Positions 14,265 to 61,103 of a stretch of 64,000 nt of DNA are shown one piece after another. The stretch lies in the NCBI RefSeq assembly GCF_017875765.1, contig NZ_JAGGNA010000001.1:829001-893000 (forward strand), given 5' to 3'. Source of the stretch: Flavobacterium sp. CG_23.5 (GTDB lineage Bacteria; Bacteroidota; Bacteroidia; Flavobacteriales; Flavobacteriaceae). The first letter of the stretch is position 1, and every line of letters begins with the position of its first letter. The position numbers and the translations under genes are program-made. The notes under the pieces are model-generated. The model was not told the origin of the DNA, made no database searches, and was given only the letters and a program-made list of their open reading frames with translations.

Positions 14265-14272
14265 TACTTTTG
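14265..14272 (+). promoter_or_regulatory. -7 box for the threonine operon leader
   Basis: TACTTTTG matches TAnnTTTG exactly. The -33 element is weak (GTTTAG at about 14242). Initiation would fall at about 14277-14280, just before the leader peptide ATG at 14283, so the leader would be translated from an almost leaderless message. Confidence 0.6.
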
Positions 14273-14282
14273 ATATACAATA

Positions 14283-14384
14283 ATGGCAAACAACAGAACA
14301 ACATATCACTCTTCGATAACAACTCAATTTTGGGTTGATGCTTCTTTGACATTTACTGCTGCAACAACTACAACTACCCCTTAG
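14283..14384 (+). CDS. thrL: Threonine operon leader peptide
   Basis: A 33-codon frame directly before thrA with 11 threonines, including five in a row (residues 28-32) and a proline just before the TAG stop. It begins MANNRTTYHSSITTQFWVD. It lies between a consensus -7 box and a hairpin followed by T-runs, which is the layout of ribosome-mediated attenuation, as known for the E. coli thr operon leader. There is no sequence similarity to the E. coli peptide beyond threonine richness. Function is inferred from composition and position. The gene symbol is used by analogy. Confidence 0.8.
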   Translation: MANNRTTYHSSITTQFWVDASLTFTAATTTTTP

Positions 14385-14416
14385 GGGTATACATTTCACA
14401 TATAATCCTATTTTTT
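14382..14416 (+). terminator. Candidate thr attenuator hairpin
   Basis: TAGGGGTATA (14382-14391) can pair with TATAATCCTA (14401-14410), with one G-U and one mismatch, and six T follow at once. Its left arm starts at the leader stop codon. A competing small hairpin, TACCCC-TTA-GGGGTA (14375-14389), would use the same G-run. Confidence 0.55.
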
Positions 14417-14489
14417 ATACTTTTTTTCTAAAGAAAGACGGTTGATGGATATATATAAGAATTCGCATTTTTAAATTAAAACAGACAAA

Positions 14490-16937
14490 ATGAAAATATT
14501 AAAATTTGGTGGAACTTCGGTAGCCAATGCACAAAATATAAAACTAGTTCTAGATATAATAATTAATAAAGCTAACGAAGAAAAACTAGTCGTAGTGGTT
14601 TCTGCTTTTAGCAAAGTAACTGACTTGCTTCAGCTAGCCTCCATCAATGCGGCTTCAAATGATGAAAGTTATAAAGAAATTGTTGCCGAAATTGAAAAGA
14701 AACATCTTGACGCGCTAAAAGAATTAATTCCGGTCAGCGAGCAAAGTGGTTTATTAAGCCATATAAAACGAATCATCAATCATCTTGAAACTTTGTTAGA
14801 CGGCTGTTTTCTTTTGGGCGAACTATCCCCTCGAACTTCGGATACAATTTTAAGTTTTGGTGAATTATTGTCTTCTTATATCATTGCAGAAGCATTAAAA
14901 CAAAACCTAAAAAATAGCAGCTATAAGGACAGTCGCGAATTGATAAAAACAAATAATCATTTTGGAAAAGCAGCAGTAAATTTTGAAATTTCAAATCAAT
15001 TGATTGCTGATTTTTTTGCCTCGAATGAGAATCAAGTGGTAATCATGCCTGGTTTTATCGCTACTACATTAGACGGAATAAACACTACACTTGGTCGCGG
15101 CGGTTCCGATTATACTGCAGCAATTTTAGCGGGAGCTTTAAACGCAACTAATTTAGAAATATGGACTGATGTAAACGGTATGTTTACCGCTAATCCAAAA
15201 ATAGTAAAACAAGCCGTTCCAATCGCCAGCATTTCTTATCAAGAAGCGATGGAGCTATCGCATTTTGGTGCCAAAGTTCTCTATCCACCTACTATTCAAC
15301 CCGTTTTGAGAAAGAATATTCCAATTCTTATCAAAAATACATTCGAACCAGAAGCAGAAGGAACTTATATTTCGAATAATGTTACGCCAAACTCTTATCC
15401 TGTAAAAGGAATTAGCCATATTGACAACATTACTTTAATTACGCTTGAAGGTCCTGGAATGATTGGTGTTTCCGGTTCTTCCAAAAGACTTTTTGAGGTA
15501 TTATCACATGAAAATATCAATGTGATTTTTATTACTCAAGCTTCATCTGAGCATTCTATTTGTATCGGAATTTTAGATACTGATGCCGAGGTTGCTGAAG
15601 ATGCCATCAATAAAGCTTTTGAAATTGAAATTTTACAAAACAAAATTGACCGTTGTATTGTTGAAAAAAACCTTTGCATCATTGCTTTGGTAGGTGAAAA
15701 CATGAAGAACCATCAAGGTTTAAGCGGCCGAATGTTTAGTACTTTAGGGAAAAATAATGTTAACATCCGAGCGATTGCGCAAGGTGCTTCAGAAAGGAAC
15801 ATCTCAGCAGTGATTAATGAAAGAGATGTTAAGAAAGCATTGAATACTTTACACGAAAACTTTTTTGAAGAAAACACAAAACAGTTGAATTTATTTGTGA
15901 TGGGTGTTGGAAATGTAGGGGAAAAATTCATTGAACAAATTAACCAACAAAAGAAATTCCTGAAAGACAACTTAAAAATAAACTTGAGAGTTATTGCGGT
16001 GTCCAATTCTAGAAAAATGCATTTTGATGAAGAAGGAATTTCTTTGAAAGAATGGCAATCACTTTTAGAGAATGGAGAAACTGCAGATGCAGCAACTTTT
16101 ATTTCTAATGTAAAAGCATTGAATTTGCGCAACAGTATTTTTGTTGACATTACTGCTAATGAAAGTGTTTCTAAAACCTACGAACACTATTTAAAACAAA
16201 ATGTTGCCGTGGTAACTTGCAATAAAATTGCCTGTTCATCGGCTTATGATAATTACAAGAATCTAAAAAAACTATCGAGACAATATAACGCTCCATTCTT
16301 ATTCGAAACTAATGTTGGAGCAAGTTTGCCAATTATCGACACCGTAAAAAATTTAATTGCATCAGGTGATAAAGTGAATAAAATTCAAGCTGTTTTATCC
16401 GGAAGTTTAAATTTTATCTTCAACAATTTTGATGAAAACAACACTTTTCATGATGTTGTAAAAGAAGCTGGTGTACAAGGATTTACAGAACCAGACCCTA
16501 AAATAGATTTGAGCGGAATTGACGTAGCACGTAAAATATTAATTCTGATACGAGAAAGCGGTTACAAAATGGAAATTGACGAAATTGCCAATGAATCTTT
16601 CGTGCCTGCTGAATGTTTGGAAACAACATCGAATGAGGATTTTTTCGCCTCTTTAAATAGAAATGCTGCTCATTTTGAAGCTATTTACAAAGAAGCACTA
16701 AGCAAAGATTCAAGACTAAAATATGTTGCTCAATTCGAAAATGGAAAAGCTAATGTTGGCTTACGATTTATTCCTAAAGACCATCCTTTTTACAATCTGG
16801 AAGGAAAAGATAATATTGTATTATTTTTTACAGACCGTTATGTAGACCAGCCGTTATTGATAAAAGGTGCAGGTGCTGGAGCAGCAGTTACGGCTTCAGG
16901 AATTTTTGCTGATGTAATTAGAATTGGAAACGTGTAA
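14490..16937 (+). CDS. thrA: Bifunctional aspartokinase / homoserine dehydrogenase
   Basis: An 815-residue fusion catalysing the first and third steps from aspartate to threonine and methionine. The N-terminal aspartokinase domain begins MKILKFGGTSVANAQ and contains PGFIATTLDG and TTLGRGGSDYTAAILA. ACT regulatory domains lie around residues 310-460 (LEGPGMIGVSGSSKRLFEVL and LCIIALVGENM), consistent with feedback inhibition. Homoserine dehydrogenase begins near 468 with LFVMGVGNVGEKFIEQ (Rossmann GxGxxG). It heads thrA-thrB-thrC and lies 105 bases downstream of the Thr-rich leader. Confidence 0.98.
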   Translation: MKILKFGGTSVANAQNIKLVLDIIINKANEEKLVVVVSAFSKVTDLLQLASINAASNDESYKEIVAEIEKKHLDALKELIPVSEQSGLLSHIKRIINHLETLLDGCFLLGELSPRTSDTILSFGELLSSYIIAEALKQNLKNSSYKDSRELIKTNNHFGKAAVNFEISNQLIADFFASNENQVVIMPGFIATTLDGINTTLGRGGSDYTAAILAGALNATNLEIWTDVNGMFTANPKIVKQAVPIASISYQEAMELSHFGAKVLYPPTIQPVLRKNIPILIKNTFEPEAEGTYISNNVTPNSYPVKGISHIDNITLITLEGPGMIGVSGSSKRLFEVLSHENINVIFITQASSEHSICIGILDTDAEVAEDAINKAFEIEILQNKIDRCIVEKNLCIIALVGENMKNHQGLSGRMFSTLGKNNVNIRAIAQGASERNISAVINERDVKKALNTLHENFFEENTKQLNLFVMGVGNVGEKFIEQINQQKKFLKDNLKINLRVIAVSNSRKMHFDEEGISLKEWQSLLENGETADAATFISNVKALNLRNSIFVDITANESVSKTYEHYLKQNVAVVTCNKIACSSAYDNYKNLKKLSRQYNAPFLFETNVGASLPIIDTVKNLIASGDKVNKIQAVLSGSLNFIFNNFDENNTFHDVVKEAGVQGFTEPDPKIDLSGIDVARKILILIRESGYKMEIDEIANESFVPAECLETTSNEDFFASLNRNAAHFEAIYKEALSKDSRLKYVAQFENGKANVGLRFIPKDHPFYNLEGKDNIVLFFTDRYVDQPLLIKGAGAGAAVTASGIFADVIRIGNV

Positions 16938-19297: not shown

Positions 19298-19816
19298 GAC
19301 AATGTTCCTGTTTTTATGGAGGGAAACTACTCAATTGGTTTCTGGGTAATGAATGAACCTAAGAATTGAGTGTATTGCTTGTAACCAAATAGCAAATTTC
19401 TGTTTTCGTTTTTGTAAATCTAGAATTCGTTTTGAGATTATAATTTGTTTCATCCCCTTTTTTGGCTAAAAGTATTACTATTTAAAAAAAGTGTCGTGTA
19501 GCCCCGATAGTAGCGGCATCCTTTTGTCCCGGCTTTTCGGGACAAAAGATAAAGCGAATAGCGGGACGACTGGTCTTGAAAAACCGCAAAATTTGTGCTC
19601 CTAATGCAACTGCTGAAAGGTTGCGTTTAATCTACTTGTTTTCACTTAAAAAAAAGTCAATATAGCATTGGGAAATTAAATTGAACGATACTATTTCGCT
19701 TAATTATTTCCATTCCTGTTTTGTCCCAAAACATTATAGCTAAACCTTTAAAAATTAAAAATTTACATAGAAGTAAAATTGAGCAATCAGCAAAAAAAAT
19801 AATTTAAAAACACCTC
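19298..19816. other. Long spacer after thrC
   Basis: About 500 bases that hold one structured repeat (19499-19570) and no convincing coding frame. I see no strong U-tract terminator directly after thrC. Confidence 0.5.
19499..19570 (+). repeat. Flavobacterial hairpin repeat, copy A
   Basis: It begins TAGCCCCGATAG and ends near GAATAGCGGGA. The central hairpin ATCCTTTTGTCCCG / CGGGACAAAAGAT has one bulged base. Related copies occur at 32232, 50775 and 60972. Confidence 0.75.
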
Positions 19817-26309: not shown

Positions 26310-26446
26310 GGGTAGGTCGCGTAAGGGATTGCGGCGATATCCTTTATTTTTTTCTTTTAAAAAAATAAAGATAAAGCCAAAAGCCCGACCCAAAAGTTGA
26401 AAACGAGGAAGGAACGACCGAAATTTTCAACTTTTGGGATACGCCC
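26310..26446. repeat. Structured intergenic repeat of a second type
   Basis: It contains GGTCGCGTAAGGGATTGCGG and a matching GCCCGACC, an A/T-rich hairpin around 26340-26372, and a perfect 15-bp dyad CCCAAAAGTTGAAAA (26389-26403) / TTTTCAACTTTTGGG (26424-26438) with a 20-base loop. It lies between a GNAT gene and the convergent FMN reductase gene. Confidence 0.65.
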
Positions 26447-32175: not shown

Positions 32176-32231
32176 GTTTCGTAAACCAAGCTAAGTCTTA
32201 AAAAAAGATTGAATTGAAAAAACAAATGCCC

Positions 32232-32315
32232 TAGCCCAGATAGCAATGGAAAGCCCACAGTCACGCCTTTTGTTGGCGAGACGAGGACTTGAAATGGATA
32301 GCTGGAATTAGCTCC
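32232..32315 (+). repeat. Flavobacterial hairpin repeat, copy D (degenerate)
   Basis: It starts TAGCCCAGATAGCAATGG and ends GGATAGCTGGAATTAGCTCC, with a central CGCC...GGCG hairpin. It is the most diverged copy of the family and lies between the S10 gene and gcvT. Confidence 0.65.
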
Positions 32316-50636: not shown

Positions 50637-51017
50637 TTCATTATTAAAAACGTCGATTCGAGTGTTTTTTTGTGCAATGAAATGCAACAAAAAATTTATC
50701 GAGAAACCTTCAGACTCAACGAAGTTAATCGTTTTTATTTCTAGGAGCAGAAACACCTATTTCCATAACAACATCCCTCCCGCTATCCGCTGTATTCCCG
50801 CCAAAAAGGCGGGAGATGCCGCTGCTATCGGGGCTACATGACTACGGACTATTTTCACAACAATTTCATTTAAAAAACAATAGGATTCCTACTTTTTTCT
50901 TGTAGTTTATTTCTTTATATTTGAGAAATAAAACAAAACAAAGTTTCGTAGATTAATTTATTTTAGATTAGAAATATGAAGGTTTTTCACGAATAATTAA
51001 GAGTTAGAAGTAATTTT
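50637..51017. other. Spacer holding repeat copy B and a candidate promoter
   Basis: The first part has no feature beyond the repeat. TATATTTG at 50916-50923 matches the -7 box and is the best candidate promoter for the HEPN-like gene, about 95 bases before its ATG. Confidence 0.45.
50775..50836 (-). repeat. Flavobacterial hairpin repeat, copy B
   Basis: On the minus strand it reads TAGCCCCGATAGCAGCGGCA..., then the hairpin TCCCGCC-TTTTT-GGCGGGA, then AGCGGATAGCGGGAGGGA. The hairpin is shorter than in copies A and C but is perfectly paired. Confidence 0.75.
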
Positions 51018-60971: not shown

Positions 60972-61060
60972 GGAGCTATTTCCCGCTATCCGTTATAATC
61001 TTTTATGTCGTCCCGAAGTTTCGGGACGGCATAAAAGGATTTCCACTTCTATCGGGGCTA
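60972..61060 (-). repeat. Flavobacterial hairpin repeat, copy C (most complete)
   Basis: On the minus strand it reads TAGCCCCGATAGAAGTGG..., a long hairpin with CTTTTATGCCGTCCCGAA paired to TTCGGGACGACATAAAAG, then CGGATAGCGGGAAATAGCTC. It is the fullest copy in the window and lies between the small membrane-protein gene and fumC. Confidence 0.8.
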
Positions 61061-61103
61061 GTTTCAAACAAAAAGCGAACACACACAATTTAACATCATA
61101 AAA

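What the first reader, a model, noticed from the sequence alone, without database searches (positions are those of the whole stretch)
14265..14489. Threonine leader peptide with a candidate attenuator upstream of thrA in a Bacteroidota genome
A -7 box TACTTTTG (14265-14272) is followed by a 33-codon frame with 11 threonines, five of them in a row before Pro and stop. A hairpin TAGGGGTATA/TATAATCCTA followed by six T begins at the stop codon. I infer that a ribosome stalled on the Thr codons covers the left arm and prevents termination, while a ribosome that finishes and leaves lets the terminator form. This differs from the E. coli design with a separate antiterminator. The near-leaderless start is also notable.
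Basis: partly seen in the sequence, partly recalled or inferred. Interest (0 to 1): 0.75.

Follow-up and report, generated by a model that had tools for sequence, protein, structure and literature searches.

The report
Threonine leader attenuator lacking a terminator
A tiny threonine-rich gene in front of the threonine-making genes is a widely conserved, probable sensor of threonine supply in flavobacteria, but it lacks the usual stop signal for transcription, so it probably switches those genes off by a different route from the textbook one.

Summary
Box, 33-codon Thr-rich frame, stop and drawn hairpin lie where stated, upstream of thrA-thrB-thrC. The frame is conserved: 84 of 84 Flavobacterium loci and 78 of 86 examined loci of other Flavobacteriaceae, preceded by a TAnnTTTG box in 84 of 84 and 71 of 77.

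The proposed terminator is not supported. H1 is more stable in 81 of 81 Flavobacterium sequences; a U run follows H2 closely in 9 of 81. H1 recurs at the leader's end across the family and in six other families.

One detector finds an intrinsic terminator in 29 of 29 his leaders and 28 of 29 trp leaders of the family, but in 0 of 78 thr leaders, and in 4 of 84, all weak, in Flavobacterium.

Best reading: a Thr (partly Ile) leader-peptide attenuator built around a stop-codon hairpin, without intrinsic terminator; transcription is probably ended by Rho at a paused polymerase. The Rho step is inference. New variant of a known kind.

The parts
14265..14272 (+). TACTTTTG, -7 box (TAnnTTTG consensus); start of transcription inferred at about 14277
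   Evidence: box present upstream in 84 of 84 Flavobacterium and 71 of 77 family loci; consensus and position from PMC9723704
14283..14384 (+). Thr-rich leader peptide gene, 33 codons, stop TAG at 14382-14384
   Evidence: conserved in 84 of 84 Flavobacterium and 78 of 86 other family loci
14375..14389 (+). Hairpin H1, TACCCC-TTA-GGGGTA, spans the last Thr and Pro codons and the stop codon
   Evidence: -7.5 kcal/mol, more stable than H2 in 81 of 81; core pairs invariant in 81 of 81; hairpin of score 12 or more at the frame end in 83 of 84 and 70 of 78
14398..14408 (+). Conserved element ACATATAATCC, ATAT 10 nt after the edge of H1; candidate polymerase pause or pairing site
   Evidence: edge to ATAT 10.4, sd 0.7, n = 82 in Flavobacterium
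14382..14410 (+).
   Evidence: -2.1 kcal/mol; pair counts
14419..14442 (+). A/U-rich hairpin H3 enclosing the U-tract; weak in this species (-3.4 kcal/mol), stronger in many other Flavobacterium; no U-tract after it
14490..16937 (+). thrA, bifunctional aspartate kinase/homoserine dehydrogenase I
   Evidence: NF006959, 1050 bits
17045..17968 (+). thrB, homoserine kinase (start chosen by me)
   Evidence: TIGR00191
18008..19297 (+). thrC, threonine synthase (start chosen by me)
   Evidence: TIGR00260

Best explanation
It is a ribosome-sensing attenuator of thrABC that works without an intrinsic terminator. Transcription starts about 6 nt before a Thr-rich leader gene (inferred). With enough charged tRNA-Thr the ribosome reads through the Thr run, reaches the stop codon inside hairpin H1 and leaves; H1 closes behind the polymerase, which stands about 10 nt further on at the conserved ACATATnnTCC element (pause inferred), and transcription is ended before or early in thrA by a factor, most likely Rho acting on the now untranslated RNA (inferred). 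When Thr is short, the ribosome parks on the Thr run, holds the left arm of H1 and covers the RNA; H1 cannot form and the polymerase goes on into thrABC. Shown here: leader, its conservation, single upstream promoter box, H1, steady spacing between H1 and the element, and absence of a detectable intrinsic terminator in contrast to his and trp. Inferred: stalling, pausing, Rho. Confidence in the parts: Thr leader attenuator 0.93; no intrinsic terminator 0.8; Rho as the ending step 0.45. The figure given is for the whole chain.
For: Leader conserved in 84 of 84 Flavobacterium and 78 of 86 family loci; box upstream in 84 of 84 and 71 of 77, but between leader and thrA in only 2 of 84 and 6 of 77. 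H1 -7.5 against H2 -2.1 kcal/mol. Intrinsic terminator in 0 of 78 family thr leaders against 29 of 29 his and 28 of 29 trp leaders. Element tied to H1, not to the stop codon. thrA start equally open in three modelled states. RNA after H1 has C over G in 70 of 70 family loci, C/G 2.35. rho gene present.
Against: No bench data. C over G also holds in 27 of 30 regions before trpE (C/G 1.39), so it is a weak sign, and in Flavobacterium C/G after H1 is only 1.36. Covariation of H1 is modest: 30 to 122 of 500 shuffles reach the observed measures, and the outer pair shows a signal in the family only. The element is not recognisable as ATAT in 14 of 70 family loci with H1. The H1 model R1 found no match in 4 of 15 other genomes of the genus and matched in only 26 of 120 family genomes under strict filters. 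A pause or a rut site cannot be read from sequence.
Confidence: 0.42

Rival explanations
1. One reading: H2 plus U6 is an intrinsic terminator, blocked when the stalled ribosome covers its left arm.
For: Arms and U6 are present in the window; four H2 pairs are kept in 76 or more of 81 Flavobacterium sequences.
Against: -2.1 kcal/mol; H1 more stable in 81 of 81; close U run in 9 of 81; pairs broken in 39, 14 and 13 of 81; no terminator in 78 of 78 family leaders.
Confidence: 0.08
2. Classical three-way attenuator reduced in Flavobacterium: H1 is the 1:2 pause hairpin, H2 the 2:3 antiterminator, and an A/U hairpin of AUAUAAU with the stretch before the second U-tract is a weak 3:4 terminator.
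For: Order of elements and stop-codon position fit the trp and his leaders of the same genome; by eye, some species have AUAUAAU/AUUAUAU followed by U7-8.
Against: Predicted pairing of the two arms averages -0.69 kcal/mol; swapped partners average -0.89 in one direction and -0.53 in the other, where 62 of 80 real pairs beat the mean but 82% of swapped partners are as good. Not applicable to other genera, which lack the U-tract.
Confidence: 0.13
3. Translational control: leader occupancy opens or closes the thrA start, with polarity following.
For: No terminator found; a leader ORF that acts on initiation followed by Rho is known, toiL-topAI in E. coli (PMC12121999, abstract and passages).
Against: Predicted openness around the thrA start is the same in three states: 0.63, 0.63, 0.65 in 50 Flavobacterium and 0.54, 0.54, 0.56 in 62 family sequences.
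Confidence: 0.15
4. H1 itself is an unusual U-poor terminator that fires when no ribosome covers it.
For: Strong compact hairpin, conserved, with a fixed site about 10 nt downstream; in L004, L005 and L050 it is followed by TTCATTTT and the detector calls it.
Against: In most family loci the tract after it is not U-rich, e.g. TAAGCAACTACATAT.
Confidence: 0.14

Closest known systems
E. coli thr leader (thrL; Rfam Thr_leader, RF00506; features recalled)
   Same: Leader peptide rich in Thr and Ile in front of thrA; sensing by ribosome stalling presumed.
   Different: No Rfam match at gathering score or among matches to E 10; no intrinsic terminator detected; stop codon inside a conserved hairpin.
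his and trp leaders of Flavobacteriaceae
   Same: Same family, same kind of leader peptide, leader to gene distance of the same order.
   Different: They carry a terminator in 29 of 29 (his) and 28 of 29 (trp) leaders; thr in 0 of 78.
Classical thr attenuators of another family of the class (f3: L186, L296, L297, L299)
   Same: Thr/Ile leader in front of thrA.
   Different: Strong terminators of -15.7 to -21.2 kcal/mol with U-tracts.
tna and mgtL leaders of enterobacteria (Rho-dependent; as described in PMC5021804, passages)
   Same: A leader ORF whose stalled ribosome prevents Rho termination; no intrinsic terminator needed.
   Different: Other signals and genes; Rho not tested here.
cys leader peptides of Actinobacteria without obvious terminators (PMC1262725, passages)
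   Same: Amino-acid runs near the leader stop, no terminator, Rho proposed.
   Different: Different amino acid and phylum; that paper reports no conserved hairpin there that could serve as terminator, whereas H1 is conserved here.
Structured 5' regions of Flavobacterium psychrophilum (PMC9723704, section 19 and part of section 15 read)
   Same: States strong clues for leader-peptide attenuation upstream of amino-acid operons and names conserved 5' elements at pheA and hisG.
   Different: 'thrA' and 'threonine' do not occur in its main text; its supplement could not be read.

Membership tests
Thr_leader (RF00506, E. coli type) | Thr/Ile-rich leader peptide in front of thrA | tested here: met
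   Ile is rare in Flavobacterium (7% of the last 16 residues)
Thr_leader (RF00506, E. coli type) | Match to the Rfam model | tested here: not met
Thr_leader (RF00506, E. coli type) | Intrinsic terminator with U-tract before thrA | tested here: not met
   0 of 78 family and 4 weak of 84 Flavobacterium; H2 -2.1 kcal/mol
Thr_leader (RF00506, E. coli type) | Alternative antiterminator pairing | tested here: inconclusive
   H2 could serve in Flavobacterium; no common partner in other genera
Ribosome-mediated attenuator (wide sense) | Leader gene co-transcribed from one upstream promoter, with regulatory codons before its stop | tested here: met
   co-transcription itself inferred
Ribosome-mediated attenuator (wide sense) | Response to the amino acid | not testable with these tools
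   needs a reporter or RNA ends
Rho-dependent leader (tna/mgtL-like) | Rho present in the organism | tested here: met
   PF07497, E 2.8e-33
Rho-dependent leader (tna/mgtL-like) | C-rich, G-poor untranslated stretch | tested here: inconclusive
   C/G 2.35 in family, 1.36 in Flavobacterium, 1.16 before hisG, 1.39 before trpE
Rho-dependent leader (tna/mgtL-like) | Readthrough rises when Rho is inhibited | not testable with these tools
   needs bicyclomycin or Rho depletion

The most novel reading that the evidence does not exclude
Bacteroidota carry a second class of amino-acid-operon attenuator: a Thr/Ile leader peptide whose stop codon lies in or beside a conserved hairpin that sets a polymerase pause about 10 nt downstream, with factor-dependent instead of intrinsic termination. 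It coexists in the same genomes with classical his and trp attenuators and stands in place of the classical thr attenuator kept in another family of the class.
Probability: 0.4. Interest if true: 0.75.

Novelty: new variant of a known kind. Interest (0 to 1): 0.6.

Why it matters
As far as I recall, the textbook attenuators of amino-acid biosynthetic operons end in an intrinsic terminator. Here, within one bacterial family, his and trp obey that rule and thr does not, by one and the same detector. That makes a clean natural comparison for asking how a stalled ribosome can control transcription without an intrinsic terminator, and how transcription and translation are coupled in Bacteroidota, whose mRNAs lack Shine-Dalgarno sites. 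It also warns against naming a terminator from a weak hairpin and a U-run in an A+T-rich genome.

Tried and rejected
H2 as terminator: rejected on energy, relatives and U-run. A/U-only 3:4 terminator in Flavobacterium: no clear signal (the window's own row there used the first U-run). H3 as terminator: by eye no U-tract follows it in the listing; in Flavobacterium it encloses the U-tract, and 29 of the family loci listed there gave no hairpin or a very weak one by my reading. Its stem B beats the mean of swapped partners in 61 of 80, stem A in 42 of 80. Structure after H1 in general: mean z -1.03 (83 Flavobacterium), -0.26 (70 family), -0.40 (5 phylum). Pairing of the G-run of H1 with one fixed downstream site when the left arm is masked: partners differ between genera, often inside thrA codons. 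Translational occlusion of thrA: no state-dependent change. A second promoter between leader and thrA: box in 2 of 84 and 6 of 77. Same element at other genes: model R1 finds thrA (E 4.5e-7) plus one site at E 3.97 in the own genome. In 120 family genomes it gave 27 matches in 26 genomes; by my comparison with the places listed, 21 lie beside thrA, 5 are in genomes whose thrA place was not printed, and 1 (G054, E 0.29) lies elsewhere. No Thr/Ile/Met leader was noticed in the stretches looked at before ilvD (not first in its operon), the second AK-HSD and lysC. The GUCCY-hairpin of Weinberg 2010, whose name recalls the GUCC of the element, was seen only in that paper's table and not compared. 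One search picked an internal ATG in 20 of 80 loci; 15 of these 20 were re-read, with 2 others, and all show an ATG right after the box. Of the 8 family loci without a Thr-rich frame, L087, L135 and L151 still show an H1-like hairpin after an Ile-rich stretch; the detector calls nothing in the last 200 nt before thrA in 7 of the 8, and in L087 a stem whose tail lies inside the leader.

Full report
What is there. The window lies in a Flavobacterium genome (one contig, 3.67 Mb; nearest named relatives are Flavobacterium). thrA, thrB and thrC follow each other up to 19297. Upstream lie a TACTTTTG box (14265-14272) and a 33-codon frame (14283-14384) with 11 Thr. Only this one of 686 small ATG frames in the window has 7 or more Thr in 12 residues. 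In 80 related loci 67 of 6317 do, and all 67 are in front of thrA.

Conservation. A scan of genome contigs gave 327 stretches that encode a relative and kept the best 80, nearly all labelled Flavobacterium; 80 of 80 have a Thr-rich frame in front of thrA. In 20 of them the script had taken an internal ATG; 15 of the 20 were re-read and have an ATG right after the box. A family search found thrA in 247 of 299 genomes. I examined 88 of these (29 loci from the tool and 59 stretches I chose from the ranked list); 2 of the 88 are Flavobacterium. With one rule set a Thr-rich frame is found in 84 of 84 Flavobacterium loci, 78 of 86 other family loci and 7 of 25 loci of a wider set (one of the 7, L198, looks spurious, and one of the 25, L174, is a family locus without a leader). 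Content of the last 16 residues: Thr 48%, Ile 7% in Flavobacterium; Thr 31%, Ile 12% in the family. So Ile joins Thr outside the genus.

H1, the missed hairpin. The end of the frame forms TACCCC-TTA-GGGGTA. In Flavobacterium four pairs hold in 81 of 81; the loop-closing pair is C-G in 70, U-G in 9 and U-A in 2; the outer pair is U-A in 75. Outside the genus the frame ends differently (T-P-L-G, T-P-F-G-V, T-L-W-G-C) but the hairpin stays, in 70 of 78 at score 12 or more, with replaced stems such as CAACCC/GGGTTG and, in two loci of another family, ACGGG/CCCGT. Formal covariation is modest because the core hardly varies: on the model alignment 30 to 122 of 500 shuffles reach the observed measures. 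For the outer pair 39 of 74 family sequences pair against 30.2 expected (25 of 2000 shuffles reach it), with no signal in 83 Flavobacterium or 5 phylum loci.

The element after H1. ACATATnnTCC follows. In Flavobacterium the distance from the edge of H1 to ATAT is 10.4 (sd 0.7) and from the stop codon 14.6 (sd 2.4), n = 82; in the family 8.8 (sd 2.2) against 7.6 (sd 4.1), n = 56 of 70. It is tied to H1 rather than to the stop. A hairpin about 10 nt behind a fixed site resembles a pause hairpin; this is inference.

H2 folds at -2.1 kcal/mol, H1 at -7.5, and H1 is more stable in 81 of 81; a run of 5 or more U lies within 8 nt after H2 in 9 of 81, the window among them. Three pairs of H2 fail in 39, 14 and 13 of 81. 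If H2 forms at all, in classical logic it would rather be an antiterminator, because it becomes possible when the left arm of H1 is covered.

Control with his and trp. The same genome has a His leader (MFTNQLHHHHFHYCSQAMC) and a Trp leader (MKTILNNTWWWNNLRQSS), each followed by a strong hairpin and U-tract. In the family 29 of 30 hisG loci have a His leader and 29 of 29 of those a terminator; 29 of 30 trpE loci have a Trp leader and 28 of 29 a terminator. The same settings find a terminator in 0 of 78 family thr leaders, in 4 of 84 Flavobacterium (three are H1 followed by TTCATTTT; one, in L067, scores -6.7) and in 2 of 7 wider loci, of which L186 is real and L198 follows what looks like a spurious frame (repeating, which used a slightly shorter hairpin limit). 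The sets overlap in part: by my comparison, 9 of the 30 his and 11 of the 30 trp genomes are also in the thr set, the window's own among them. In the 12 of these that are not Flavobacterium no terminator is called in the last 200 nt before thrA; in one of them, L151 of G040, no Thr-rich frame was found.

Wider spread. Of 38 loci of the class and phylum sets looked at, 17 were flagged as Thr/Ile frames (L292 and L303 look spurious to me). Family f3 (L186, L296, L297, L299) has the classical design with terminators of -15.7 to -21.2 kcal/mol. L188 (f4) has a strong hairpin after its frame that the detector does not call, for lack of a U-run. An H1-type end without a strong terminator after it occurs in nine loci of six other families: L175 (f4), L181, L185, L300 (f8), L176, L178 (f21), L289 (f46), L294 (f47), L306 (f63); for L289, L294, L300 and L306 this is by eye from the printed sequence. 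In L289 the detector calls H1 itself, in L306 a weak stem (-6.3) further down; the terminator called for L178 lies upstream of its leader. f21 belongs to another class. The remaining 21 loci show no Thr/Ile leader by the script; L307 among them seems misplaced.

How it may work. One promoter box serves the unit (upstream in 84 of 84 and 71 of 77; between leader and thrA in 2 of 84 and 6 of 77). The thrA start is equally open in three modelled ribosome states, so a translational switch has no support here. After H1 the RNA is G-poor in the family (C/G 2.35; C over G in 70 of 70) against 1.16 before hisG (15 of 30) and 1.39 before trpE (27 of 30); Flavobacterium shows 1.36. A rho gene is present. 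I therefore favour stalling on Thr, H1 as a gate at the stop codon, a pause at the element and Rho-dependent ending, in the manner of tna and mgtL as described in PMC5021804 (passages). The leader and the missing terminator are well supported; Rho is a guess at a little under even odds.

Specificity and Rfam. No Rfam family matches the leader at gathering score or, below E 10, with any plausible member. A covariance model of H1 with its flanks (R1) finds thrA and one site at E 3.97 in the own genome, and matches 11 of 15 other genomes of the genus at E below 0.005; the other 4 gave none, and I did not check whether they have thrA.

Prior work. PMC9723704 (section 19 and part of section 15 read) reports strong clues for leader-peptide attenuation upstream of amino-acid operons in F. 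psychrophilum without naming thr in the main text; its supplement was not available. PMC1262725 (passages) describes cys leader peptides without terminators in Actinobacteria and suggests Rho. PMC7366714 (passages) mentions leader-peptide-like small ORFs in B. thetaiotaomicron. Ten full-text searches listed no paper that I could recognise as describing a Thr leader in Bacteroidota; most subscription papers are not held, and long hit lists were cut.

Noticed in passing
19496-19572 (+), 26311-26394 (+), 32229-32312 (+), 50772-50839 (-), 60975-61063 (-): Five Flavo-1 RNA motifs (RF01705) in 64 kb, one right after thrC; function unknown.
   Followed up: no
L225 (minus strand) and L227: His and Trp leader peptides with strong terminators in front of hisG and trpE of the same genome, conserved in the family. 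The Trp antiterminator GTCGTGA overlaps the stop codon.
   Followed up: partly
L186, L296, L297, L299: Family f3 keeps a classical thr attenuator; in L296 GGAGGAAG near the leader end could pair with CTTCCTCC of the terminator.
   Followed up: partly
L176, L178, L181, L188: Some leaders mix Met with Thr and Ile (TMTITITP, ITMISTITP, TTTGMMTTTITG), as if sensing several products of the aspartate pathway.
   Followed up: no
L006, L008-L011, L014-L016, L020, L021, L023-L027, L058, L060, L061 and others: Part of the Flavobacterium species have 150-270 nt instead of about 105 nt between leader stop and thrA; the added DNA was not examined.
   Followed up: no
L039, L045: Contigs labelled Klebsiella pneumoniae (MAG) and Lentimicrobium carry Flavobacterium-like thrA (87% and 86% identity) and leader: probably mis-binned or mislabelled.
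   Followed up: no
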